Positions 31,377 to 43,852 of a stretch of DNA of 60,879 nt are shown here, piece after piece. The stretch's first letter is position 1. Every line of letters begins with the position of its first letter. Source of the DNA: Ectocarpus siliculosus (taxonomy: Eukaryota; Sar; Phaeophyceae; Ectocarpales; Ectocarpaceae); NCBI GenBank assembly GCA_000310025.1, contig FN648609.1:40254-101132 (forward strand), given 5' to 3'. The translations under genes and the position numbers were made by a program. Under the pieces are notes generated by a model. That model did not search any database. It was not told the origin of the DNA and saw nothing but the letters and a program-made list of their open reading frames with translations.

Positions 31377-31380
31377 CCAG
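31377..31380 (+). repeat. Target site duplication, left copy (CCAG)
   Basis: CCAG at 31377-31380 is repeated at 43849-43852, immediately outside the two TG...CA LTRs. A 4-bp duplication fits integrase-mediated insertion of the whole 31381-43848 element. Confidence 0.85.
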
Positions 31381-31648
31381 TGTGGTGGTATGCACGCGTG
31401 ATGAGGTCTGGTTGACCCGTGAAGAAGAACTCACTTGTTGTTACTCTTGTAGAACAGCAGCAGCAGTAGCTGTTGCCTTGGGTATCGGTAGGAATGACAC
31501 CAAGGGGCACAGGATCCTCTGCACAAGCAGGGGCTACTAGATCCTGTCCCCTGCTTTTTATCCTTCCGCGGAGAGTTACATCTCTCCGCGTCTTCCAGAA
31601 GGAACCAAGCTCTTCTATGTTCCGTCTACACATCTGAATCCTATAACA
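31381..31648 (-). repeat. 3' LTR (left end)
   Basis: Matches 43581-43848 except at offsets 4, 25 and 216. Boundaries are fixed by TG...CA and by the CCAG duplication. It contains the inverted repeat CGGAGAG/CTCTCCG around TTACAT. The open frame across it is LTR sequence, not a gene. Confidence 0.95.
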
Positions 31649-32228
31649 CTAGCCCACCCTGGAGGTTCTCATACGCAGATACTGTAAAACCTCGGAGTCT
31701 TGACAAGCAATTGTCGAGTCTCTAAATGAAAGTATCGAGGATGTGGAGCTCCAAAACAGCACAATTCACCCTCCCACACCTCTCACTCGATGAGTCGCAA
31801 GACCATCGTTTGACTTCTAAAACGACAAAAAGACACAGACAGGAAGGAACTGACGGGGCTAAGAAAAGCCTACGACGACCGGAAGAAGATCGGAACCAAA
31901 GAAAGGAAGACACAAAAAAAGGAAGAAAAACAGAAAAGAAAAACAGAAAAGAAAAACAAAGGTCGTCAAAACGACAAAAAGAAAGGGTCACTGCAGGAAC
32001 CACAACAAGACCGGTATCGTAAGAAAACGACAAGATACGCCATTCACGCAGTCGCCACGGCAGTGTAGAAGGGGCATCAATGGGCGCGAAACACCTACAG
32101 GTCGTGACCAAACGCTAAAGGCACAAAATAAAGCGCGGAGAAAGCGAAAACCAACCAAGGCTAAAAAAAAAAAAACAACCCAAACAACGCTGAAAACAAC
32201 AGAAAGCCAAGACAACTAGCACGTCGTC
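31649..32228 (-). other. 3' untranslated part of the retrotransposon
   Basis: Lies between the integrase C-terminal frame and the 3' LTR. On the plus strand it is A/G-rich (31850-31990, repeated GAAAAACAGAAAA units), so it is a pyrimidine-rich tract in the element's sense strand. No open frame of interest was found. Confidence 0.7.
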
Positions 32229-32520
32229 TTAATGTGGGCGCGCAACGTTATCAGGCAACGAATCAGTCCCGGGGTCACCACGCGACATGTCGACGTTGCG
32301 AAGGATCCCCTTAAAAAGGGCACTGCCGCTGTGAACTTGGAGGCACCAGAATCCGGAGACGGCGGTTTCAGCGGTGGAGTAGCGAACATCAGGAAGGGCG
32401 AGCTTGACAGGGCCAGGATCGTCCAAGAAGCGGACGACGTAGAAGTCGGACGGTAGAGGCGGTCCAGTAATCTTGCCCAACCACCATAATCCATCGCGAG
32501 CTTTGTACCAGAAGAAGGCG
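32229..32520 (-). pseudogene. Integrase C-terminal segment in the +1 frame
   Basis: After the integrase core reads MVVNER, the sequence continues sensibly one base later as FFWYKARDGLWWLGKI and then PSDFYVVRFLDDPGPVKLAL, to a TAA at 32229. A WY/WW-K-I-T-G-P segment followed by FYVVRFLDD looks like the chromo/SH3-like tail common at the end of gypsy integrases. Only about 95 codons separate the DD35E glutamate region from the stop. The segment usually found between core and tail in related elements seems shortened, so an internal deletion accompanying the shift is likely. Confidence 0.6.
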
Positions 32521-35500
32521 CCTCTCATTGACGACCATAGCCAACATCTGAGCCATAGTGTGATTGACGCGCTCCACACCCCCATTGCCGTTGGGATGGT
32601 AAGAGCTGGTAGCCACTTTGCGTATAGCCAGACGGGCGTATACAGCCTGCGACAGTTTGGAACAAAACTGAGAGCCATTATCAGACAAGAGACTCAAAGG
32701 GCAACCCCATAAAGGGATATACCGATTGACAAGTACGTCAGCGGTGCCTTCGGCGGTGAATTCTGCAGCCGTAACCGCGTACATGTCAGCACGGCGGCTG
32801 AAACGGTCAGTGAAAAGCAGAATATATGTGTTTCCGCGCGGTGTCAACGGGAGGGGACCGAAATAATCGACGCTCACCGATACACCAGGGCCCGAAGGCA
32901 GCGGAAGGCACAAAGTAGGCCATCGAGGCGTTTGACGAGATGACTTGCGAGCTTGGCATCGCAAACAATGCCGTACCCACCACTTCGTGCAAACACTCAT
33001 GCCAACCCACCAATAAAAACGTTCCAGCATGCTAAGCGTGCGAGCGGCACCGAGGTGGCAGGATGCATCAGCGTGACAGGCTTGCATGATCCACGGACGC
33101 ATGAGCATGGGAACATAAATCCGAATGGGTTCGTCGTTGAGAAGGCGAGCAGCACGCCCGCCAGGACGTGTGGTCGTAGACGACGGGGGCGCTGTTTGCT
33201 TGCGAACAAGCAAGACCAAACCATCATCGTCAACATGTAACCGGCCTTTGTTAGACAGGTCACGGATCTCCGACAGAGAAGGTCGACGAGCGGACGGAAG
33301 ATGATCCAGGAAATCCGAAGGGAGAGCCGAAGGCCGACCCAAAAGGATGAAACGAATAGCTGCATCACAAACAGGTTCGTTACGTTGCTCGCGAGCCCAA
33401 TCAGCATGCGAGAAACGTTCGACAGACGCCCGGAAGGCTAAATCTGCCGAGGAATGTAAAGCCGCCTCGATAGAAGAGGGAGCCGATTCCTGAGGCTCCG
33501 GCTGCAATCCACCCGAAGGCAGAGTAGCAGCGGAAACCGAAGACGAAGGCGTACAAGTGGTCGAAACCAAACGCGTCGAAGATTCCGAAGAATCGGGAGC
33601 AGCAGAAGACTGCTGGGCAGGAGCAACCGAAGTTGCAGGATGCGTCGAAGACGCAAGACCCGTTCCACGAGCCAGAGGCGTAGGAAGGTCCGAGATCGAA
33701 GCGTCAGAACCAGGAGCCGAAACCAGCCTGGTCAAAACGGGGGGCGTAGTCGATGTTGATTGCGCTGGCGGGGAACGTCGAAACGATCGGGGCGAAGCGG
33801 AAATCCGAGTAGGAGTAGGCAGATCCTCGGAGAAACCATAATCCACGGGCGGGAGGGGCGTGCCTGCCACAACCGCCGTGCGACGGCGAGTTCGCGTGGA
33901 AATTAGTTGAGTAGGGTCGAGAGTCCGTCGTGATGCTGCAGTCGGCGAGACGGCCGGCGAAGACTCGGGCTCGAGAGCCAAAATGTCCTCCACCGAAGAA
34001 TGTAAGGAGCCAGACCAATCGAGGGTCCTGCCACACAGGCGTCGTAGCGAAGGAGACAATCCGCGGGAGTTGTTAGACGGCCAGGGTGCGATGTTCCAGA
34101 CGCCAGGCGGAGACGAAAGGCCTGACGGCGAGAGACGTGGACCATGCCGACGGAAGTCGACAAAATCATCTGTAGAGGGGGCCAGCCCACCCAAGACCGA
34201 AGTCGAGGAAGTCGGGACGAGCCCACCCAAGCCAACACCCACGGCGCGATGGCCAGAAGGCGTAAGGCCACAAGAACGGATGAAGAATACGCTCTCCTCA
34301 TCGTCATCCGGTGTCAAGCGACTGCGACCAGATCGGTCACATTCCGCCGCATCGATCGGAAGGCGAGAGAGGAAATCAGCGTTGCCATTTGCTGAACCCT
34401 TGCGGTACTCGAGAGTGTAATTGTAGGCGGTAAGAAATTCAAGCCAACGCTGAACGCGGGCATTGTTCTCCCCCACCTTGGCAAAATGCTCAAGAGATTT
34501 GTGGTCGGTAAAAATGCGAAATTTCGTGCCCCACAAATAACCGCGGAGTCGTTTGATGCACCATACGATGCTACCCGCCTCGAGGTCGAGGGGAGTCCAA
34601 TGACGTTCGGAGTCCAAAGTAGCTCGGCTGATGAAAACGATGGGCCGGATGGAGCCATCCGGCTGTTCTTGTTCGAGAGTCCCGCCGAACCCATCGCGAC
34701 TAGCATCACAGTAGAGGCGAAAAGGTCGCGAGCCGTCCGTAACGGCATCCCAGTCTGGATAAACCAAGACAGGAGGGTTGGCCAACTCAGACAACAGAAC
34801 GCGAACAGCTTGCTCCATGGCAGGGGTGAAGGCAAACGTCGCCTGCTTCTTGAGAAGAGTGGTCAGAGGTCGAATTCGCGTGGCCATGTTGGGAAGGAAC
34901 TTGCGGTAGTAGCTGAGGCCGCCGAGAAGAGAGCGAAGTTGTTTAACATCCTTTGGCATGGGCATTTGGGTGAGGGCCGCAACCTTGGCCCCGTGAGGCC
35001 GAACACCGTCCGGGGAGATGGTGTGGCCGAGGAAATCCGCTTCGGTAGCGCCAATGGTGGCCTTCGGTGGGGTGAGTTTCAAGTTGTGTGTGCGCAAGCA
35101 TTCAAACAGAGCGCGCATGGTATCAACATGAGAAGCAGGGTTGTCGTCGAAAACGATCAAATCATCCAAGTACGATGCAACACCGTGGAGATTTTTGATG
35201 ACTTCGTTGACCACCTTGCAAAACCACCCAGGGGCAGCAGAACTGCCTTGAGGCATCTTCAGCCACTCAAAAAGCCCGGAAGACGTCACGAATGCCGCCA
35301 AAGGGATTGTATCACGGTGAACCGTGATTTGGTGGAATGAAGACTTCATGCCGAAAAGGGAATAAATTCGCCCTTTCAACAACTTGTCCAAAGTATCATC
35401 AACTCGAGGAATCGGAAGCTGGCTCAAAGCACAGAGCTGGTTGAGCTTGCGATAGTTGACAGTGATGCGAACACCACCAGATTTCTTCGGTATGACTACC

Positions 35501-36225
35501 AAAGGACTCGAGTAGGGCGAGGTCGAATGTTGGATCAGACCAGCCGCAAGATATTGTTCAAGGATCGCGTCAACTTGTTTCGCCACCGGGGGGTTAACGC
35601 GGTATGGACGAGACGTGACGGGTGCACTGCCCGGAGGAACTGTAAGCTTGAAAGGAAAAAGCGAACAAGATCCAAAGTCGGTGGGGGAACTCGAGAAGAC
35701 ATCATGATAGTCGCACAGGACGTTACCAAGCTGAGTGATGACATCCGGAGTCCAACCCGGACCATGGAGATCAAAAGAAATCTCCCGGAGATGGCAGGGG
35801 AGCTTATCCCATACGTGGGAAAAACTCTGACGTTGTTCAGACGTCAACCGCTCGAGAAGAGCAGGCGGAGGCGACGAAAGAGAAGCACTGGCAGAACCAG
35901 GGTCCTCTTTGCCGCTTTGCGACGGCGTGGGTCGCTCATGCAAATTATACACGAAGGGGTCATCAATGCGATGCGTGGCAGACGAATCAATGCCATCTGT
36001 CGAAACAGGACCCGGAACCCAGCTGCCCGAAGCAGTGGTGGGATCTTGAGCCGCAGGTTGAAGACCATCGCTCAAACTGTGGCGAGACACAGCACTGAGA
36101 GGCACGCGAAGAAGGGGAGCCGAAGCTGTACCCAGAACGTCGCCTGGTTCGAGTGAAGAGATACCCGCGAGCGGGAGTCGTTGGCAACCATTTTGCACAA
36201 AGTGTTCCTCGGAAGAAAACATAGC
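32389..36225 (-). CDS. pol: Pol: reverse transcriptase, RNase H, integrase
   Basis: This frame is open for 1388 codons from 36555, but homology starts only near 36215, at SEEHFVQNGC. Numbered from 36555, the RT holds VNYRKLNQL (366-374), the motif A position FGMKSSFHQI (401-410), MPQGSSAAP (434-442) and YLDD (462-465). RNase H has CDASRDGFGG (Asp617), ELE-type LDLEAG, TDHKSLEH and NADFLSRLP. A Ser/Pro/Thr-rich linker of about 300 residues follows (735-1040). The integrase has an H2C2 finger (His1161, His1167, Cys1197, Cys1200) and catalytic Asp1230, Asp1292 and Glu1328, the last two separated by 35 residues. Motif A normally carries the catalytic Asp at position 402; here the codon is GGC (Gly), one base from GAC, which should abolish polymerase activity. 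The frame lacks its own ATG, so it is expected as a fusion made by +1 shifting from the protease frame. Confidence 0.9.
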   Translation of the reverse strand, partial: AMFSSEEHFVQNGCQRLPLAGISSLEPGDVLGTASAPLLRVPLSAVSRHSLSDGLQPAAQDPTTASGSWVPGPVSTDGIDSSATHRIDDPFVYNLHERPTPSQSGKEDPGSASASLSSPPPALLERLTSEQRQSFSHVWDKLPCHLREISFDLHGPGWTPDVITQLGNVLCDYHDVFSSSPTDFGSCSLFPFKLTVPPGSAPVTSRPYRVNPPVAKQVDAILEQYLAAGLIQHSTSPYSSPLVVIPKKSGGVRITVNYRKLNQLCALSQLPIPRVDDTLDKLLKGRIYSLFGMKSSFHQITVHRDTIPLAAFVTSSGLFEWLKMPQGSSAAPGWFCKVVNEVIKNLHGVASYLDDLIVFDDNPASHVDTMRALFECLRTHNLKLTPPKATIGATEADFLGHTISPDGVRPHGAKVAALTQMPMPKDVKQLRSLLGGLSYYRKFLPNMATRIRPLTTLLKKQATFAFTPAMEQAVRVLLSELANPPVLVYPDWDAVTDGSRPFRLYCDASRDGFGGTLEQEQPDGSIRPIVFISRATLDSERHWTPLDLEAGSIVWCIKRLRGYLWGTKFRIFTDHKSLEHFAKVGENNARVQRWLEFLTAYNYTLEYRKGSANGNADFLSRLPIDAAECDRSGRSRLTPDDDEESVFFIRSCGLTPSGHRAVGVGLGGLVPTSSTSVLGGLAPSTDDFVDFRRHGPRLSPSGLSSPPGVWNIAPWPSNNSRGLSPSLRRLCGRTLDWSGSLHSSVEDILALEPESSPAVSPTAASRRTLDPTQLISTRTRRRTAVVAGTPLPPVDYGFSEDLPTPTRISASPRSFRRSPPAQSTSTTPPVLTRLVSAPGSDASISDLPTPLARGTGLASSTHPATSVAPAQQSSAAPDSSESSTRLVSTTCTPSSSVSAATLPSGGLQPEPQESAPSSIEAALHSSADLAFRASVERFSHADWAREQRNEPVCDAAIRFILLGRPSALPSDFLDHLPSARRPSLSEIRDLSNKGRLHVDDDGLVLLVRKQTAPPSSTTTRPGGRAARLLNDEPIRIYVPMLMRPWIMQACHADASCHLGAARTLSMLERFYWWVGMSVCTKWWVRHCLRCQARKSSRQTPRWPTLCLPLPSGPGVSVSVDYFGPLPLTPRGNTYILLFTDRFSRRADMYAVTAAEFTAEGTADVLVNRYIPLWGCPLSLLSDNGSQFCSKLSQAVYARLAIRKVATSSYHPNGNGGVERVNHTMAQMLAMVVNERRLLLVQSSRWIMVVGQDYWTASTVRLLRRPLLGRSWPCQARPS

Positions 36226-38932
36226 ACATTGGTGGAAGCATATCCACGAGATAGTTACCCACGTGGGCTGGAGAGCCATCGCTGCGTACCAAATTAACCG
36301 GAATAAGGCTATGTTCAGGGTGAAGTTGGACGGAATGTTTTCCAGCATAGCGAAGCTGGTAGTTACCATCTGTGGAAGACAAATCGTGAGCAAATGCGGT
36401 GGCACCGCAACTGCTATGCTGAGCCAGGGTAAGCTCACCAAAAACACGGTCACCAGGGCGTTTGGCACGCAAAGTGCGGTAAGAGCGGTCGCTAAACCGC
36501 ATCCAACTGTCTCTCCCAAGGAGCACGTCATGATGCATAACACCATCGGGAACAACGTACGCCCAAACAGCGAGAGAGGAAGTAGGAAGGCGCTTGCGAA
36601 GAAACTGCACGCTCAAACGGACAATAGTCGAAGTTTGAAGTGGAGCAGATTCGCCGAAACCTCCCCAACAGCGAGGTTGGGTTTGTTTCTCAGACAACGA
36701 CGAAGCGGCCGAAGCGGCTTTCATGGATTCCCACGCAGATGCACTAATAAAAGACTGCGGGGAACCCGTGTCTAAAAGAGCAACACATCCAAACTGAACA
36801 GAAGCTGAACCACTGTGAGTGAGGATTTGGGTGGTGAAAGAGTCATCATCGATGGTAACAACACCATCAACCAAATCCGGACCTTGCTCAGGAAGCAAAG
36901 AAGAGGAAGAGGATGGCTGAGGGCACCCGGAAGACACGGCCCAAACAGCGGTGTCATGATCCGATGGAACGTTCGCAGCGTATTGTGAAAACGACGCGAA
37001 TCGTTCAGTCGACGGAGGGGTTGAGGCCATCCGAAGACGCTGGTGTGTAGAAGGGCTAACTTCATAAACCGCGTTATGTTGAGACGACGTCGAAACGTGG
37101 TCGTTGGGAGGCAGCAAACGAGAGCTGCGCTCGGGCGGCGGGGCATTGCACCGCAAAAGACTGCGTACTCGTTGAAGGGCATTGCCCAACAAATTGAGGC
37201 CACGCCATCGAGAGGTGGATAGAGCGTCGGGATCATCGGCTTGAAGGCCAATGCCCCAAATACGGTCGTAAGGACTAGCTTCGGTAAGGATTTTGTCGCC
37301 AGATCCGAGAAGATGCTCGCGCAACTCGGAGTTTTGACTAAATTTTGCGTAAGAGCCAGTGAGCACAATATTTTCGCGCTCCTGTTCCCAAAGTGATGGG
37401 TCGAAACCACGGACACCTCGGCCAAACTTCTTGTGTAAGGCAGGATCGGACACGCGCATGATGTTTTGTAAAGCGCAATGGTCTTCGAAAAGAAGAGCTT
37501 TTTCCGCAGCGAAAAACTGCTCAGCACACGAGCATACCACTCCATCGACCACAAAAGTCGACGGGGTCCATTGGGAAAAGGGAGAGGGGGGCTGCCAAAA
37601 GAAGACCATATCAGGAGTACAATACTCGTTAGATGGGTCGAAGACAGCGGGAACTGCAGGAGTCGAAACACCTGGAGTGCGGTCAGCCGAAGCTGAGGTT
37701 GCAGCCGAAGCTGATGTAGTCGAAGCGGAGGCAGCCGAAACGCCCGCATTGTAATTTACGGCGTGAACGTCCATGGGGACGGTCTCGGACATGCCAGAGA
37801 CCGGCGAAGAATCGGCCGGAGCCGGATTGGTCGCAATAATTGGGCCAGCGACATGACGTTGGGTGCGCCCCAATTCTAAACCTGAAGAAACGCCTCGTAA
37901 GGTGTCATTCAACAGGTTGCTTTCGCTAGAAACGGCCGCCAAGGCCGGGTCGGTTAAAGAACCAAACCGGGCGTGGTGCTCCTGGCTATTCCTCCGTGAC
38001 AAGGTACGCGAGACCGCCGGCTGTTCGGAGGTCACTCCGGGAGGGTCCTCCCGAAGCGGTGGTGTCAACACTGTCGACGTCGGTCGCGGCGGCCTGGTAT
38101 CGGGCGCCGTGGGGCGAGCGTGCGTCGGAAGGGATGGAGCGTCCGAAGACGATCCATGGTCGAAATATCTCGTGGCGGAATCTGATGATGTTCGGCGGTC
38201 AGGACCAAGAGAACAACGCGATTCGAAGCCAGGCGAATTTGACCCTGTAACTTGCCGGTCGGAACCAGTCAAGTTAGCTACCGGTGCAACAATCGAGGGC
38301 GAACCCTCAACGGAAGCGAGCACAGACGAGTTGAGCGTATCCGAAGATTCACCCGAGGTAACCAATTCAGGCGATTCCTCTTCAATCGTCCAAAGCGCAT
38401 GGCTACGGACGGTCTGATCTGCAGACGACGGGGGGAGCGAACGAGCGGTGCCCGACAAACGAGCGGTACTCGATGGCCCCGAAGGTCCTACGGTTCTGTT
38501 CCCGCACCTCAAGACAGCACTCGCGCCAGACTGGTTAATTTCTGACGGAGAGCCAGCCCGAAGAGGCAGAGACGCAGAGGTGGCAGATGATAAGTGCGAT
38601 GTAGAAGGTGGGACGAGAGCATTTGTCTGGATACCGACCTGATCGACACTGGGGAAAACAACGGGTACCGAAGTATGGTTGTTATTGTACGGCACCGAAG
38701 TACCAGAAGGGATAACATTCACCGAAGTGCGGTTATCGTTGCGTAGGACCGAAGTGCTAGAGGCAACAGTGTGTGACGGCGCGACAGATACCGAAGTATT
38801 GTCGTTGTTGCATAAAACCGAAGTATTAGAGGCAACAGAGCGTGACACACGAGCGTCTTGTGATGAACGAGATGAGGTCCCCGAAGATGCTGAAGGCGGT
38901 CCGGGGGAAGTAGGCGAACCACCACCGATGAG
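35987..38932 (-). CDS. NADAR domain fused to retroviral-type aspartic protease
   Basis: The frame is open from directly after the Gag UGA (38935-38933) to 35987 and is in the same frame as Gag. Numbering from codon 38848: residues 1-400 are Ser/Thr/Pro-rich and disordered. Residues 411-567 (about 37618-37148) form a NADAR/YbiA (DUF1768) domain with PFSQW, VDG, CAEQFF-AEKALLF (Glu443, Lys450), GRGVRGFD, W487, AKFSQN (501-506), EASPYDRIWGIGL (523-535) and RWRGLNLLG (547-555). Residues about 680-785 form the protease, with ALLDTGSPQSF (Asp693) and a flap-distal HHDVLLGRDSW. NADAR proteins are ADP-ribosyl glycosidases, some removing ADP-ribose from guanine in DNA. Every hallmark motif is retained, so the domain may be active. 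From about 36215 on, the true product shifts +1 into pol, and the rest of this frame (to 35987) is noise. NADAR function inside a retroelement is my inference. Confidence 0.88.
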   Translation of the reverse strand, partial: LIGGGSPTSPGPPSASSGTSSRSSQDARVSRSVASNTSVLCNNDNTSVSVAPSHTVASSTSVLRNDNRTSVNVIPSGTSVPYNNNHTSVPVVFPSVDQVGIQTNALVPPSTSHLSSATSASLPLRAGSPSEINQSGASAVLRCGNRTVGPSGPSSTARLSGTARSLPPSSADQTVRSHALWTIEEESPELVTSGESSDTLNSSVLASVEGSPSIVAPVANLTGSDRQVTGSNSPGFESRCSLGPDRRTSSDSATRYFDHGSSSDAPSLPTHARPTAPDTRPPRPTSTVLTPPLREDPPGVTSEQPAVSRTLSRRNSQEHHARFGSLTDPALAAVSSESNLLNDTLRGVSSGLELGRTQRHVAGPIIATNPAPADSSPVSGMSETVPMDVHAVNYNAGVSAASASTTSASAATSASADRTPGVSTPAVPAVFDPSNEYCTPDMVFFWQPPSPFSQWTPSTFVVDGVVCSCAEQFFAAEKALLFEDHCALQNIMRVSDPALHKKFGRGVRGFDPSLWEQERENIVLTGSYAKFSQNSELREHLLGSGDKILTEASPYDRIWGIGLQADDPDALSTSRWRGLNLLGNALQRVRSLLRCNAPPPERSSRLLPPNDHVSTSSQHNAVYEVSPSTHQRLRMASTPPSTERFASFSQYAANVPSDHDTAVWAVSSGCPQPSSSSSLLPEQGPDLVDGVVTIDDDSFTTQILTHSGSASVQFGCVALLDTGSPQSFISASAWESMKAASAASSLSEKQTQPRCWGGFGESAPLQTSTIVRLSVQFLRKRLPTSSLAVWAYVVPDGVMHHDVLLGRDSWMRFSDRSYRTLRAKRPGDRVFGELTLAQHSSCGATAFAHDLSSTDGNYQLRYAGKHSVQLHPEHSLIPVNLVRSDGSPAHVGNYLVDMLPPMCYVFFRGTLCAKWLPTTPARGYLFTRTRRRSGYSFGSPSSRASQCCVSPQFERWSSTCGSRSHHCFGQLGSGSCFDRWH

Positions 38933-41455
38933 TCATCCGCTGCGAGAACGACCACCATTTTGGAAGTTGCCAGGTTGACGGGCATTGTGATTGGTCGAAA
39001 CCATGATGCCAGACGAAGGACCGGTGTGTGCATGTGTTTGTGGTTGATAGAGGGACAGAGCACCAGTGTGGTTGGTGTTGATCGAAGGGTGTGGCTGAGG
39101 GTGAGAGTTACCCGCAGAATTTCCTGGGGCATACCCACCGTTGTGCGAGTGTGTCTGATGAGTGTGAGGGGAACTACCACCGTCGGAACGGCGATTCCCA
39201 GCGTGGTTTCGACGCTGAGAGGACGAAGAGGAAGAGCGCTGGTGGCGTCTACCCTGATTGTTTTGGCGGTTGTCCGCACTTTTTCGTCGAAAAGACCGCA
39301 TACGGCCTTGCCAACGTCTAAAAGCAGCAGAATCGTCATTGAGGAGACCCAACTCGGGGTTCAACAACCCACTAGAATTCGTGAACGGTGCAACGCATTG
39401 CTTCATGGAATGGTCTTCACCCGAGCAGTTCAGACAGCGATTCCTGTTTTCGCGGAAGGCTTGCGAGCGAGCCTCTTGTGTCAACAAAGGAGTCCACAAA
39501 AAAGGATCCTCCGTGTTACGAAAACTAGAAGTGAGAGCGTATACGTCAGACCAATCGGCTTGCGAAGCAGGCCAAGAATTATAGTTGCGTGTGAAAGGGT
39601 CAGCGTCGTGCGATTGTACCGGCAAAACTACAGGGTTCTGAGCGGAACCTGGTGCCCACTGGCCCGAAGGCGCGGGGGCGCGGTGTTGGGACCGCCGAGG
39701 CTGCGAGGAGCCACGCGTCGAAGACAACGAAAAATAAGATGAACCGCCGATAGCCGGGGTTTGATTTGTCGCTAGAGGCGCGAACGCCTCCCACATATCC
39801 GCAATCGACGCAAAGGGAGTGACGGCCGTGGCCAGAGCACCCGGGTACAAAATCGGAGACAAACTCGGAAATTGCTTGCAGACCGAATGCCGCACAATTT
39901 CTAGAACCATGGACACGCTAGGGGCCAAAGTACGCTCAGAGCCAGTCACAGACGAAACCAACAAACGAAAAGCACGAAGGTAATCCGCGAAAGAAGTACC
40001 ATCTGCTACTCCAAATTGTTGAAGCCTCAAAAACGACTCTTGACGGTCGCCGACATCAAATTGCTCCGCAAGATGACGCAACAGCAACTGAAAAGCTTCT
40101 GGTCCGGTGGCGCCGCCGTCCAAGCTTCTCTTCACCTGCTGAAAGTAATCAGCGATGGAAAGGACAAGATCGGCAGTAGAGGGCTTGTCAGGGGTGATCG
40201 CACCCGAAAGTTTCTTTTCGAGAGGCCGTTCCCATCCAGGCACGTAATCCGTACTGTCCAACCCTTCGCTTTGGTCATCACACAGCAACAATATGTCGGA
40301 CAAGGCCGTTCGTGTTGTGCGGATGAGCTGTTGGTAGCCGTCCCCAGGCAACAAAGTTGAAGGGAAGGGCATGGTAGCGACATTTCCAACTTTTTTCAAG
40401 TTCAGAGTGATGTACGCCCGTTGGACAGTAACTACGTGAGCCTTGCGAACTGCCGAAGCAGCCGCATCTACGGTGGCTTGACGAGCATGTGCAATGTTGG
40501 AAGAAAGTGGCAAGACACTATCATCCGAAACGACAGGGGGTGCAGCAGCTGCAACCGAAGGAGCAGCAGGCGGAACACGATCCCAAGACGGTACAACATG
40601 ATGAACATCTTGTACGGGCACAAAAGTCGAAGGGGGGGTGGGGTTTGAGAACCCGGGGTTGTGTGCGATTCCTGAGCCTACAGCATAATCAGCGGTAGAA
40701 AAAACAGGAGGTGCCACAGTTTCCGAAGAAACGGGGGGGGGCGAAGCCTGTGGCATGTTCGAAAACGCAGCACGAGTTTCCGAAGAAACAGGGGGGGCCG
40801 AAGCCTGTGGTATGTTCGAAAACGCAACACGAGTTTCCGAAGAAACGGGGGGGGCCGAAGCCGGAAGGTTCGAAAACGCAACACGAGTTTCCGAAGAAAC
40901 GGGGGGGGCCGAAGCCGGAGGGACAAAATCGTCACGCAAAAGGAAACGAGCATCCGAAGTCGCGTCCATGAGGGACGGAACAACTTGCCTTTGACGACCT
41001 GGCTTGCGGGGCAAGCTGGTGTCCGAGCCTGACCCGGTCTTGCTCTTGTTCTTGGAGCCACGAGCGCCATCCCCGCCACGCTTGGCCACCTTTCTCTCCC
41101 GGCTACCACCCACCGAAGAGGACGAAGGCGCCGGGGGTGGACGCGATGCTCCAGCCGAGCTCCAGCCAGACTCCTCGCCCGAGCTACCAGGACCAGTCTC
41201 CCGACTCGGTTGCGCCTGCTTGACACGACCCGGCGCCGGCTGCTGGAACACATAGGAAGCCTCTAAAGGCGGATCGCTGCAGCCAGGGTACACCACCGGA
41301 GCAGTGGCACGGGCGTTGGCTGTCCGCATCCCAGCGAGGAAACGGCCGGCCAGATCCCGAAGATCCAGACGGGAGGTGTTGGCCACATCCACCGCCTCCT
41401 GAATGGTGACGACCGCCGGCAACGCGATGGCCACTTCCGTGGCCAAGTCCGGAAG
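38933..41455 (-). CDS. gag: Gag-like polyprotein with CCHC zinc knuckle
   Basis: The frame is open from 41455 (after a TAA) to a TGA at 38933. There is no clear ATG; the first usable codon in the open frame is TTG at 41446, giving 837 residues. Order: basic, Ser/Pro-rich N-terminus; four tandem copies of a roughly 20-residue ASAPPVSSETRVAFSN unit (176-243); a helical capsid-like region (about 330-560, with LRHLAEQFDVGDRQESFLRL and FADYLRAFRLLV); and a CCHC knuckle CLNCSGEDHSMKQC (Cys671, Cys674, His679, Cys684). A basic, then His/Asn-rich tail follows. It would package element RNA and assemble the particle in the cytoplasm. The absence of an ATG and the +1 relation to ORF1 suggest either expression through ORF1 by a frameshift or a one-base indel in the minisatellite upstream. 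Confidence 0.82.
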   Translation of the reverse strand, partial: LPDLATEVAIALPAVVTIQEAVDVANTSRLDLRDLAGRFLAGMRTANARATAPVVYPGCSDPPLEASYVFQQPAPGRVKQAQPSRETGPGSSGEESGWSSAGASRPPPAPSSSSVGGSRERKVAKRGGDGARGSKNKSKTGSGSDTSLPRKPGRQRQVVPSLMDATSDARFLLRDDFVPPASAPPVSSETRVAFSNLPASAPPVSSETRVAFSNIPQASAPPVSSETRAAFSNMPQASPPPVSSETVAPPVFSTADYAVGSGIAHNPGFSNPTPPSTFVPVQDVHHVVPSWDRVPPAAPSVAAAAPPVVSDDSVLPLSSNIAHARQATVDAAASAVRKAHVVTVQRAYITLNLKKVGNVATMPFPSTLLPGDGYQQLIRTTRTALSDILLLCDDQSEGLDSTDYVPGWERPLEKKLSGAITPDKPSTADLVLSIADYFQQVKRSLDGGATGPEAFQLLLRHLAEQFDVGDRQESFLRLQQFGVADGTSFADYLRAFRLLVSSVTGSERTLAPSVSMVLEIVRHSVCKQFPSLSPILYPGALATAVTPFASIADMWEAFAPLATNQTPAIGGSSYFSLSSTRGSSQPRRSQHRAPAPSGQWAPGSAQNPVVLPVQSHDADPFTRNYNSWPASQADWSDVYALTSSFRNTEDPFLWTPLLTQEARSQAFRENRNRCLNCSGEDHSMKQCVAPFTNSSGLLNPELGLLNDDSAAFRRWQGRMRSFRRKSADNRQNNQGRRHQRSSSSSSQRRNHAGNRRSDGGSSPHTHQTHSHNGGYAPGNSAGNSHPQPHPSINTNHTGALSLYQPQTHAHTGPSSGIMVSTNHNARQPGNFQNGGRSRSG
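40718..40921 (-). repeat. Coding minisatellite in gag (four units)
   Basis: About four units of 57-60 bp, each with TTCGAAAACGCA and CGAGTTTCCGAAGAAAC on the plus strand, encode the ASAPPVSSETR-AFSN repeat in Gag. Copies differ by only a few bases, pointing to recent slippage or unequal exchange. Confidence 0.9.
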
Positions 41456-41720
41456 TTACAGCCGCGGCCGAAGCCGTGGCCGAAGCCGGGGGTACTGCCG
41501 AAGCAGGGGTGGCGGCCGAAGCCGAGGGCGCCGCCGAAGCAGCGGTGGTGGCCGAAGCCGAGGGTGCCGCCGAAGCAGCGGTGGTGGCCGAAGCCGAGGG
41601 TGCTGCCGAAGCAGCGGTGGTGGCCGAAGCCGAGGGTGCTGCCGAAGCAGCGGTGGTGGCCGAAGCCGAGGGTGCCGCCGAAGCAGCGGTGGTGGCCGAA
41701 GCCGAGGGGGGTAGGACCAT
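41184..41720 (-). other. Continuation of the ORF1 frame after its TAG stop
   Basis: The frame reopens directly at an ATG that abuts the ORF1 stop (TAGATG at 41723-41718) and runs 178 codons. The first 80 codons are tandem SASATTAASAAP repeats encoded by the 36-bp minisatellite. The rest overlaps the Gag start in a different frame and looks like noise. Its composition resembles the end of ORF1, so ORF1, this segment and Gag may once have been continuous. Confidence 0.5.
41476..41712 (-). repeat. 36-bp minisatellite between ORF1 and gag
   Basis: Six or so units of GCCGAAGCAGCGGTGGTGGC followed by CGAAGCCGAGGGTGCC (plus strand) with minor variants. All three frames are low in stops here. Because the unit is a multiple of three, unit number changes keep frame, but the downstream gag frame is +1 to the frame entering the array. 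Confidence 0.92.
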
Positions 41721-43445
41721 CTAGACAGGCTCGGCCGGCCGGCCGGTGATTGCAGACCTTGTTCCGCCGCCGGTGGCGGAATCCCGAAGCTCGGGAGTCG
41801 AAAGCCGAACTGAAGATGTCGGCTCGTGCTTGGGGGCCGGAGTCGTGGTCACCATGGTGCTAAGAAGGCCGTGGAGATGGCGATTGTAGCGCTCTGCGAT
41901 TTCGAGACGATGAAAAGCCTCAGCCGTAGCAGCACGTTCATGCGAAGAAGAAAGCATGGGGGGGGGTGGGGGCACGGCGTAAGGGTAAGGGGAAAGGGTA
42001 GGGGCAGAGGGTACTGCTGAAACAACCGAGGTCGCAGCTAGGGGCGCCGAAGCAGGAGCTAGCATGGCAGAGTCGGTCGAAACGGTAGGATCGAAACCCG
42101 CCGTGTGAACACGTGAATCTGTGGAAAATGCGAGCAGAGGCGTATCTACTGGCATAGAAACAGCGGTGTTTACAGCAGCCGAAGCCGCTGACACAGGGTT
42201 CTGTGTGGAAGTAGTGTGGGCGGGGAAAGGGGCAGACGACACTGTACGCAGGGTCGAAACGGTGCGAAGAGGCGGAGCTGCAGGAATATTAGCATCGCCA
42301 GCAGTCGAAACTGTGAGCAGGGGCGGAGCTAATGGAATGGGCAAAAGTACACGTGCAGCAGTCGAAACCGCAGAGACAGGTGCACCAGTAGTGGGAACAT
42401 GATAGGCATGTGGGGGGGCAGACGTCACAGCAGTACGCAGCGTCGAAACGGTACGCAAAGGTGGGGCGGCTAAGGCAGCAGCACCGCGAACAGTCGAAAC
42501 TGTGGGTAGCGGCGGAGCTAAAGGGATGGGGGCAAACACACCTACAGCAGTCGAGACCGCAGGGACAGGCACATTAGCAGTCGAAACTGCACGTGTAGTC
42601 GAAACTACTGAAGCTAAAGCATCGGAGGCAAACGAAATGGCCTGTGTGGGCGAAACCACGGGATCAGATGCAGTAGAATCAACCGAAAGAGCTGGGGTAG
42701 ACGAGGCTACTGTGGGGAGTGTACCAGAGGCAATCGAAATCGCCCGTGTAGTCGAAACTACTGGAACAGTGGTTGGTGATGCGGCGGAATCTGCAAGCGG
42801 TGATGTCACTGAAGCAGATGCACGACGGTCACGAAGCCGTTGAGCGCGAGCCGCTGCTTGTACACGATCGCTACGAGAAGAAAAAGGGGGAATCGCCGGC
42901 ACTGTATAGTCGAACTGCAACGTGCTGCGAGAAGCCGAGCGACTGGACAAGCGTGGTACTACAGGGCCAGCAACATGGTCGAAACCGATGTCGGTCCCAA
43001 GAGCAGGGTGCTCAACGGTGGATGGGGCGAGAGGAAAATTCGAGTCGACATGTGGTTCACGCGGGAATTCAGAAAGCTCATCACCAGCAGCCGTCGAGAC
43101 GGACTGCTGTTGTACACCCAAAGACACAGAGGCAGAAACCGAAGTTCCAGGTGTGGGTGCTGGCGGTTTGAGGACAGCACCCACGGGGTTAGCGTCGACC
43201 GAAGCCGGCGAGGCGAACCTCTCCCGAATGCGTTGAGCGCGAAGCTCTGACAAACGAGCGGCATCGGCAACAGGGTCAGCGGCACGAGCACCGTCCGAAG
43301 ACAGCAGCAGTTGTGTGGTCTGACGACCAGCTGCTGGGGACCCGAAGGTCGCTACACGGGGCGATGACACTGGCGAACGCGAACGTTCCGAATGCTCAGG
43401 ACTCGCCGAAGCAGAGTCTGATGAGCCGACGCTAGGTTGAGACAT
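41721..43445 (-). CDS. Retrotransposon ORF1, low-complexity protein upstream of Gag
   Basis: The first ATG of a frame that opens inside the 5' LTR is at 43445 (MSQPSVGSSDSASASPEHSE), giving 574 residues to a TAG at 41721. It is rich in Ser, Ala, Val, Thr and Pro, with many diverged PPLRTVSTLRT/VSTA-type repeats. Two Arg-rich helices (RLSELRAQRIRERF; VQAAARAQRLRDRRA) lie in the first half. Near the end, RAATAEAFHRLEIAERYNRH and LHGLLSTM look like a short coiled coil. No domain is recognised. It could be an N-terminal Gag extension or a separate accessory protein. Confidence 0.6.
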   Translation of the reverse strand: MSQPSVGSSDSASASPEHSERSRSPVSSPRVATFGSPAAGRQTTQLLLSSDGARAADPVADAARLSELRAQRIRERFASPASVDANPVGAVLKPPAPTPGTSVSASVSLGVQQQSVSTAAGDELSEFPREPHVDSNFPLAPSTVEHPALGTDIGFDHVAGPVVPRLSSRSASRSTLQFDYTVPAIPPFSSRSDRVQAAARAQRLRDRRASASVTSPLADSAASPTTVPVVSTTRAISIASGTLPTVASSTPALSVDSTASDPVVSPTQAISFASDALASVVSTTRAVSTANVPVPAVSTAVGVFAPIPLAPPLPTVSTVRGAAALAAPPLRTVSTLRTAVTSAPPHAYHVPTTGAPVSAVSTAARVLLPIPLAPPLLTVSTAGDANIPAAPPLRTVSTLRTVSSAPFPAHTTSTQNPVSAASAAVNTAVSMPVDTPLLAFSTDSRVHTAGFDPTVSTDSAMLAPASAPLAATSVVSAVPSAPTLSPYPYAVPPPPPMLSSSHERAATAEAFHRLEIAERYNRHLHGLLSTMVTTTPAPKHEPTSSVRLSTPELRDSATGGGTRSAITGRPAEPV

Positions 43446-43566
43446 ACCGATAAGCGAGGCAAAGCTAAGCTGTGGTTGGGGCGAAAGCGCAAAAAACTGC
43501 AGCAGCAGTCTAAAGCACCAAACCGCGCCAAGACACAACCAAGCCAGACAACACCGTACGAATAAG

Positions 43567-43578
43567 CCGACAACGCCA
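43567..43578 (-). promoter_or_regulatory. Primer-binding site candidate
   Basis: On the minus strand, TGGCGTTGTCGG starts two bases inside the 5' LTR. This would pair with a tRNA ending CCGACAACGCCA. The position is right and it opens with TGG as expected; the tRNA species was not identified. Confidence 0.5.
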
Positions 43579-43580
43579 AG

Positions 43581-43848
43581 TGTAGTGGTATGCACGCGTG
43601 ATGAAGTCTGGTTGACCCGTGAAGAAGAACTCACTTGTTGTTACTCTTGTAGAACAGCAGCAGCAGTAGCTGTTGCCTTGGGTATCGGTAGGAATGACAC
43701 CAAGGGGCACAGGATCCTCTGCACAAGCAGGGGCTACTAGATCCTGTCCCCTGCTTTTTATCCTTCCGCGGAGAGTTACATCTCTCCGCGTCTTCTAGAA
43801 GGAACCAAGCTCTTCTATGTTCCGTCTACACATCTGAATCCTATAACA
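43581..43848 (-). repeat. 5' LTR (right end)
   Basis: Identical to 31381-31648 apart from three transitions. In element orientation it starts TGTTATAGG and ends CCACTACA. It should hold the promoter and transcription start. Confidence 0.95.
43755..43761 (-). promoter_or_regulatory. TATA-like box in the 5' LTR
   Basis: ATAAAAA in the minus-strand context GGATAAAAAGCAGG, about 90 bases into the 5' LTR. It is the only TATA-like motif in a fitting position; transcription would begin about 25-30 bases further on. Confidence 0.4.
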
Positions 43849-43852
43849 CCAG
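43849..43852 (+). repeat. Target site duplication, right copy (CCAG)
   Basis: Matches 31377-31380 on the other side of the element. Confidence 0.85.

What the first reader, a model, noticed from the sequence alone, without database searches (positions are those of the whole stretch)
37148..37618. A NADAR (YbiA/DUF1768) domain embedded in a Ty3/gypsy retrotransposon polyprotein
Between the Gag zinc knuckle and the protease the element encodes a full-length NADAR domain with all hallmark motifs (CAEQFF, AEKALLF, GRGVRGFD, AKFSQN, EASPYDRIWGIGL, RWRGLNLLG). NADAR proteins are ADP-ribosyl glycosidases, some acting on ADP-ribosylated guanine in DNA, and they counter DNA-modifying ADP-ribosyltransferases. 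A retroelement with such an enzyme could protect its nucleic acid or particle proteins from host ADP-ribosylation, or use ADP-ribose/NAD chemistry during replication. The domain sits in the only long frame linking Gag and protease, so it would be made as part of the virion polyprotein and released by the protease. I am not aware of this arrangement being described, but cannot search.
Basis: partly seen in the sequence, partly recalled or inferred. Interest (0 to 1): 0.93.

Follow-up and report, generated by a model that had tools for sequence, protein, structure and literature searches.

The report
ADP-ribose-removing enzyme inside algal retrotransposon
A jumping element in a brown-algal genome carries, built into its own polyprotein, a well-preserved bacterial-type domain that in other proteins removes ADP-ribose; the arrangement was reported in 2025 for Ectocarpus, its role is untested, and this work adds evidence of one capture, selection and a wider spread.

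Summary
Window 37603-37151 (minus) encodes a complete NADAR domain (PF08719, 151.7 bits, cut-off 35.1). It lies between a Gag zinc knuckle and an aspartic protease in a 12.5-kb Ty3/Gypsy element (31381-43848; 268-bp LTRs, CCAG duplication). It is no one-off: 150 NADAR matches were scored in this genome, and 100 of 109 related reverse transcriptases have NADAR or its remains upstream. The 33 best-scoring Gypsy RNase H matches, apparently other lineages, have none listed.

The arrangement is already published for Ectocarpus (PMC12477816, passages read).

Added here: active-site residues are kept; NADAR is more conserved than the protease in 10 of 10 subfamily pairs while linkers are mostly near background; NADAR and RT diverged together; sampled retroelement NADARs, with one Pylaiella protein, form one clade (95/96) among bacterial NADARs including Planctomycetota; over 100 more NADAR polyproteins, mostly with a protease motif, lie on unnamed ENA contigs; one UGA-C separates Gag from NADAR-Pol in the 6 of 7 subfamilies readable there.

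Most likely mechanism (inferred): an ADP-ribose N-glycosidase packaged as part of Pol, cleaning ADP-ribose off the element's nucleic acid or proteins. Substrate unknown.

The parts
31381..43848 (-). Ty3/Gypsy LTR retrotransposon carrying NADAR
   Evidence: LTR pair, TG...CA ends, TSD, gag-pol domains
43581..43848 (-). 5' LTR, 268 bp
   Evidence: 3 differences of 268 to the other LTR
31381..31648 (-). 3' LTR, 268 bp
43849..43852 (.). target-site duplication CCAG
31377..31380 (.). target-site duplication CCAG
38933..41446 (-). Gag ORF (837 aa as listed from a TTG), ending in TGA
   Evidence: no Pfam match
39395..39436 (-). Gag zinc knuckle CLNCSGEDHSMKQC
   Evidence: read from the translation; motif recognised from knowledge
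38933..38935 (-). in-frame TGA between Gag and NADAR-Pol, followed by C
   Evidence: same site in other copies and subfamilies
37604..38932 (-). Ser/Thr/Pro-rich linker, first ATG only at 37792-37790
   Evidence: poorly conserved between subfamilies
37151..37603 (-). NADAR domain (YbiA family)
   Evidence: PF08719 151.7 bits; TIGR02464 138.7 bits; model pLDDT 96.6
37520..37522 (-). Glu equivalent to E43 of P. nicotianae NADAR
   Evidence: E in 48 of 48 aligned copies
37499..37501 (-). Lys equivalent to K50
   Evidence: K in 47 of 48
37280..37282 (-). Glu equivalent to E125, mark of the YbiA subfamily
   Evidence: E in 48 of 48; role from PMC11543638 section 12
36503..36778 (-). aspartic protease, LLDTGS (36778-36761) to LLGRD
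   Evidence: motifs recognised from knowledge, no Pfam match
35017..35493 (-). reverse transcriptase (RVT_1)
   Evidence: PF00078 81.6 bits
34423..34731 (-). RNase H (RT_RNaseH)
   Evidence: PF17917 107.5 bits
32938..33114 (-). integrase zinc-binding domain
   Evidence: PF17921 49.6 bits
32593..32889 (-). integrase core
   Evidence: PF00665 36 bits, cut-off 32.6

Best explanation
Shown: the window holds one damaged copy of a Ty3/Gypsy lineage that has a YbiA-family NADAR domain as the first folded part of Pol; the lineage has kept the domain and its ADP-ribose pocket residues while its subfamilies diverged. Inferred: the domain is a working N-glycosidase that removes ADP-ribose. It is made in small amounts as Gag-NADAR-Pol when ribosomes pass the UGA-C at the end of Gag, is packed into the particle with Pol, and is perhaps cut free by the protease. 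There it most likely removes ADP-ribose from the element's RNA or cDNA (guanine-ADP-ribose is the substrate known for other NADARs) or from particle or nearby host proteins, so that reverse transcription and integration are not blocked by a host or competitor ADP-ribosyltransferase. The domain came from a bacterium, probably once.
For: Domain and pocket; residue roles from PMC11543638 section 12 and passages of PMC11125620, where every NADAR/YbiA protein tested removed ADP-ribose from guanine. Constraint: across 21 pairs of 7 subfamily representatives synonymous differences are near saturation (pS 0.53-0.89) while NADAR pN is 0.15-0.36; NADAR identity exceeds protease identity in 10 of 10 pairs, linkers are mostly near background. 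Co-inheritance with RT: r = 0.836 over 7 representatives, reached by 8 of 5040 permutations. Lineage-specific: NADAR upstream in 77 of 150 RNase H matches, 0 of the top 33. Position at the Gag/Pol border behind UGA-C. Precedent: NADARs in polyproteins of positive-strand RNA viruses, argued to counter host ADP-ribosylation (PMC9503650 passages; structural matches to nidovirus polyproteins). Origin.
Against: No activity, substrate or host transferase is shown. No DarT in this genome (0 matches); PARP only 4 weak short matches, though intron-split genes are poorly seen. NADAR changes faster than RT in 20 of 21 pairs. Within young subfamilies pN is close to pS in several pairs, as for copies drifting after insertion. 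The position of D86, which contacts the proximal ribose, is not kept (P, Q, H, E, Y and others). Eight RT relatives have no NADAR within 2.5 kb upstream. UGA bypass is unproven: a fold of the 113 nt after the UGA has z -0.61, the 5-bp consensus stem has no compensatory change, and in Tca2 a gag-UGA-pol junction alone did not direct readthrough in yeast (PMC2194720, abstract).
Confidence: 0.42

Rival explanations
1. RNA-end processing: NADAR acts on NAD- or ADP-ribose-linked ends of RNA (a NAD cap, a product of tRNA-primer repair) to prepare template or primer for reverse transcription, not on host defence marks.
For: PMC12477816 proposes processing of the RNA intermediates of transposition (passages); PMC9503650 links NADAR to RNA repair (passages). 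Position beside RT in Pol.
Against: The activity shown for tested NADARs is on guanine-ADP-ribose (passages). Other Gypsy lineages of the same genome do without the domain (0 of the 33 top RNase H matches), so it is not a general need of reverse transcription.
Confidence: 0.22
2. Small-molecule clearing: NADAR destroys soluble ADP-ribose derivatives used as host alarm signals or toxins, or modified nucleotides such as riboflavin-pathway intermediates.
For: PMC9503650 argues this for phage NADARs (passages); TIGR02464 is named for riboflavin intermediates N-glycosidase.
Against: A domain fixed in the polyprotein at Pol dose and packaged is badly placed to clear a diffusible pool; the same paper argues for macromolecular targets in RNA viruses.
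Confidence: 0.15
3. Non-catalytic role: the domain only binds ADP-ribose marks (for example PARP-modified chromatin) to tether particle or pre-integration complex.
For: The lineage also has a chromatin-reader domain according to PMC12477816 (passages), so targeting by marks is in keeping.
Against: Residues needed for hydrolysis, not only binding, are kept (E43 48 of 48, K50 47 of 48, E125 48 of 48); in the unnamed polyproteins E125 is E in 110 of 119.
Confidence: 0.12
4. Passenger: a captured gene fragment without function for the element, or a one-off insertion or assembly artefact.
For: Copies within young subfamilies show near-neutral change; 21 of 150 NADAR matches hold stops.
Against: Long-term constraint, co-divergence with RT, 100 of 109 related RTs with NADAR or its remains, 129 of 150 matches without stops inside.
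Confidence: 0.03

Closest known systems
Ectocarpus NADAR Gypsy lineage (Gypsy-12_Ec32 and kin), PMC12477816
   Same: [quoted passage not shown] bacterial blastp hits; passages read.
   Different: Nothing essential known to differ; supplements and the Gypsy-12 sequence were not seen, so family identity with the window copy was not tested. The passages shown do not mention a Gag/Pol stop (0 occurrences of readthrough, stop codon or frameshift).
Stand-alone YbiA-family NADARs (P. nicotianae NADAR 8bau, E. coli YbiA 2b3w)
   Same: Fold, E43/K50/E125, D130, W133 and most pocket residues.
   Different: Fused into a retroelement polyprotein; D86 position not kept.
NADARs in polyproteins of positive-strand RNA viruses (nidoviruses and others)
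   Same: NADAR inside the replicase polyprotein of an RNA-genome element; structural matches to Yellow head, Gill-associated and Wenling nido-like virus 1 proteins; PMC9503650 passages.
   Different: No reverse transcription, LTRs or integrase; 18-22% identity in those matches.
Tx1 LINE ORF1 proteins with NADAR (Crassostrea gigas, PMC12477816)
   Same: A second retroelement class with NADAR (passages); P0134 here looks like such a protein (NADAR 87.7 bits).
   Different: Non-LTR; divergent NADAR that falls apart from the Gypsy rows in the quick tree.
DarT1-NADAR toxin-antitoxin (BC4488 family)
   Same: Same superfamily and presumed chemistry (PMC11543638, section 12).
   Different: Glutamate, not aspartate, at the E125 position; no DarT found in the genome.
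Gag-UGA-Pol junction of Tca2 (PMC2194720, abstract read)
   Same: Single in-frame UGA between gag and pol.
   Different: Tca2 has no NADAR as far as the abstract tells; its bypass mechanism is called non-canonical.

Membership tests
YbiA-family NADAR | Significant match to the family model over its cut-off | tested here: met
   PF08719 151.7 vs 35.1; TIGR02464 138.7 vs 73.7
YbiA-family NADAR | Catalytic Glu/Lys (E43, K50) kept | tested here: met
   48 of 48 and 47 of 48 copies; residue roles
YbiA-family NADAR | Glu (not Asp or His) at E125 position | tested here: met
   48 of 48
YbiA-family NADAR | YbiA fold | tested here: met
   AF2 pLDDT 96.6; Foldseek to viral NADARs, best TMq 0.88; the PDB comparison could not be run
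YbiA-family NADAR | ADP-ribosyl hydrolase activity | not testable with these tools
   needs protein
Ty3/Gypsy (Metaviridae) LTR retrotransposon | LTR pair with target-site duplication | tested here: met
   268-bp LTRs, 3 differences, CCAG
Ty3/Gypsy (Metaviridae) LTR retrotransposon | Order RT-RNase H-integrase | tested here: met
   PF00078, PF17917, PF17921, PF00665 in that order
Ty3/Gypsy (Metaviridae) LTR retrotransposon | RT phylogeny within Ty3/Gypsy | not tested
   no RT tree with reference elements was built; PMC12477816 reports one for Ectocarpus
Published Ectocarpus NADAR Gypsy lineage | NADAR at N-terminal region of Pol | tested here: met
Published Ectocarpus NADAR Gypsy lineage | C-terminal chromodomain after integrase | tested here: inconclusive
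   no Pfam match in window:32232-32678 even at E 5; an unusual W/Y-rich reader-like stretch is there
DarT1-associated (BC4488) NADAR | Asp at the E125 position and a partner DarT | tested here: not met
   Glu in 48 of 48; no PF14487 match in the genome
Programmed stop-codon readthrough | Conserved stop type and context at a same-frame gag/pol border | tested here: met
   TGA-C at every site found: 25 of 30 loci, plus window, L079, L087; 6 of 7 subfamilies
Programmed stop-codon readthrough | Stimulatory downstream RNA structure | tested here: inconclusive
   5-bp stem without compensatory changes; z -0.61
Programmed stop-codon readthrough | Measured Gag-Pol fusion | not testable with these tools
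   needs a reporter or peptides

The most novel reading that the evidence does not exclude
One ancient capture of a bacterial ADP-ribose glycosidase founded a large class of NADAR-Gypsy retroelements, in brown algae and in at least one other, unnamed, eukaryote, that carry the enzyme in their particles as counter-defence. This would imply an undescribed defence against retroelements in these hosts that ADP-ribosylates nucleic acid or particle proteins, with the domain also once recruited back into a host gene (Pylaiella P0010).
Probability: 0.25. Interest if true: 0.85.

Novelty: already known. Interest (0 to 1): 0.5.

Why it matters
ADP-ribosylation of DNA and RNA is a recent field, and NADAR outside bacterial toxin-antitoxin pairs has no known job in eukaryotes (PMC11125620, passages). 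A retroelement lineage that has kept the enzyme over long divergence is a natural experiment: its partner, the modification it removes, should exist in the host. The element therefore makes a concrete search possible for ADP-ribosylation that restricts retroelements. If the substrate is cellular RNA ends or a signal instead, it would link NAD metabolism to reverse transcription.

Tried and rejected
Rejected: chance match or artefact; one-off insertion; DarT1-type antitoxin NADAR; a phage or giant-virus donor as nearest source: 12 of the 80 kept viral-contig loci were put in a tree and fell apart from the retroelement clade (11 in one branch, one elsewhere), but no algal giant virus was singled out; a host NADAR gene as donor: the Pylaiella protein P0010 found no better match in this genome than the retroelement copies, 54% at best, though intron-split genes would be missed. 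Led nowhere: a conserved hairpin after the UGA; dN/dS between subfamilies (synonymous sites saturated; the zeros printed come from infinite dS; finite values 0.09-0.22 in 6 of 21 NADAR pairs); Pfam on the Pol C-terminus; PDB fold search; a regex recount of catalytic residues, less complete than the alignment. Biases: L001-L030 are the 30 best NADAR matches; L031-L046 and L066 were chosen by hand; subfamily names (own, B, C, C2, D, E, F) and the seven representatives are mine. The NADAR, RT and RNase H searches scored 150 of 230, 109 of 628 and 150 of 411 candidates, so counts are lower bounds. Rows dropped: animal proteins P0128, P0129 from the trees; P0133, P0134 only; L039 (frame broken inside NADAR) from the Mantel test. 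In one search, 6 of 27 locus translations held a stop and only the longest piece was used.
Full report
What is there. Its sequence relatives in the PDB are 8bau and 2b3w. AlphaFold2 gives mean pLDDT 96.6, and Foldseek against viral models finds NADAR proteins of phages, giant viruses and, lower down, nidovirus polyproteins. The element runs from 31381 to 43848, with 268-bp LTRs (TG...CA on the coding strand) that differ at 3 of 268 positions and a CCAG duplication. In coding order: Gag (zinc knuckle 39436-39395), TGA at 38935-38933, a Ser/Thr/Pro-rich linker, NADAR, aspartic protease (LLDTGS at 36778), RT, RNase H, integrase. RT-integrase lie in a different frame from NADAR-protease, so this copy is damaged.

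Not a one-off. In the 189-Mb genome 150 NADAR matches were scored of 230 candidates, 129 of them without a stop inside. Of 109 scored matches to this element's RT-RNase H (628 candidates), 96 have a listed NADAR upstream on the same strand, mostly 1.5-1.6 kb away: 28 of 35 at 93% identity or more, 10 of 12 at 82-92%, 58 of 62 at 62-68%. Of the 13 others, 3 have a NADAR in the list and 1 has NADAR fragments (L073), which makes 100 of 109; one lies too close to a contig end; 8 have no NADAR at E 1e-5 or better within 2.5 kb upstream. As a control, of 150 RNase H matches (PF17917), 77 have a listed NADAR within 6 kb upstream, but 0 of the first 33, which by their scores seem to be other Gypsy lineages. 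NADAR is therefore a mark of one lineage, as published.

Origin and spread. A protein search gave 1556 NADARs, 120 listed: Ectocarpus, one Pylaiella protein, Planctomycetota, Myxococcota-type and Actinobacteria, many unnamed. In three IQ-TREE runs the retroelement NADARs plus the Pylaiella protein fall in one clade: 93/92 in 47 rows, 93/83 in 72 rows with viral and bacterial loci, 95/96 in 63 rows with the unnamed polyproteins. Neighbouring rows include Planctomycetota, with weak support at the next forks; the viral rows sampled (12 of 80) lie apart. A search with P0127 returned 219 proteins; of the 119 listed apart from the query, 9 carry the RT family PF00078 in the database's own annotation, and contigs reach 4.4 Mb. 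In 120 proteins examined (118 new, P0132, P0127), NADAR was found in 119, an aspartic-protease motif downstream in 97; E125 is E in 110 of 119, K50 is K in 101 (16 gaps), E43 is E in 69 (47 gaps from local alignment), R93 is C in 81. Rows P0003, P0004, P0005 and P0127, which I grouped with the brown-algal ones, are unnamed metagenome proteins placed there by similarity only.

The Gag/Pol border. In 17 of 30 loci the NADAR frame read upstream meets TGA-C at the corresponding place. A pattern that left the four letters of stop and next base free found the site in 23 of 30, TGAC each time; with L001 and L029 that is 25 of 30, and the window, L079 and L087 agree. Six subfamilies are covered; F could not be read. 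In the window the first ATG in the NADAR-Pol frame is 380 codons after the stop, so reinitiation nearby is unlikely. UGA with a following C is a leaky context by general knowledge. A downstream structure is not supported. The passages and term counts seen for PMC12477816 do not mention a stop. Tca2 is a precedent for gag-UGA-pol, but there the junction alone did not give readthrough in yeast (abstract).

Literature. Searches for NADAR with retrotransposon (104 papers, 30 listed), DUF1768 with retrotransposon (0), NADAR domain (15), NADAR with brown alga and LTR (1), ADP-ribosyl with LTR retrotransposon, hydrolase domain and polyprotein (0), NADAR with transposable element and ADP-ribose (6) and Ectocarpus with retrotransposon and ADP-ribosyl (1) gave one paper on the subject, PMC12477816 (passages; supplements not seen). 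It describes the domain in all families of one of four Ectocarpus Gypsy lineages, bacterial blastp hits, divergent NADARs in oyster Tx1 LINEs, and proposes RNA processing. The main finding is therefore known.

Mechanism. Fold, pocket and constraint argue for a working ADP-ribose N-glycosidase. Its place behind the Gag stop argues for Pol-level dose and packaging. In the passages of PMC11125620 and section 12 of PMC11543638, characterised NADARs remove ADP-ribose from guanine; PMC9503650 argues that NADARs of RNA-virus polyproteins counter host ADP-ribosylation. By analogy the retroelement NADAR most likely cleans its own nucleic acid or particle. No partner transferase was found: DarT 0 matches, PARP 4 weak exon-sized matches, and other transferase families were not searched.

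Noticed in passing
P0010 (Pylaiella littoralis, 248 aa): A stand-alone NADAR protein with a Cys/His-rich N-terminus that falls inside the retroelement NADAR clade; perhaps a retroelement domain recruited by a host gene, or a mis-annotated fragment.
   Followed up: partly
P0135-P0252: A second large set of NADAR-protease (some with RT) polyproteins on unnamed ENA contigs up to 4.4 Mb, forming their own well-supported branch (100/99 for 15 rows); the source organism is unknown.
   Followed up: partly
window 41460-41708 and 40718-40942: Tandem repeats of 36 and 57 bases inside the Gag region; an upstream ORF 43634-41721 lies in another frame than Gag.
   Followed up: no
window 32232-32678 (-): Pol C-terminal stretch with a reader-like W/Y-rich sequence without Pfam match; PMC12477816 reports chromodomains or a Tudor domain at this place.
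   Followed up: no
window 43551-43580 (-): The presumed primer-binding site next to the 5' LTR begins CTTGGCGTTGTCGGC; which tRNA it fits was not examined.
   Followed up: no
P0128, P0129 (Patella) and P0134: Limpet proteins with several NADAR domains (4 stretches in P0128), and a protein with coiled-coil-like start and C-terminal NADAR that resembles LINE ORF1 proteins.
   Followed up: partly
G000:C89:161521-161970 (L039) and G000:C46:327197-327646 (L040): NADAR copies whose middle part is read in another frame yet without a stop, so that low scores there reflect paired indels and not divergent enzymes.
   Followed up: yes
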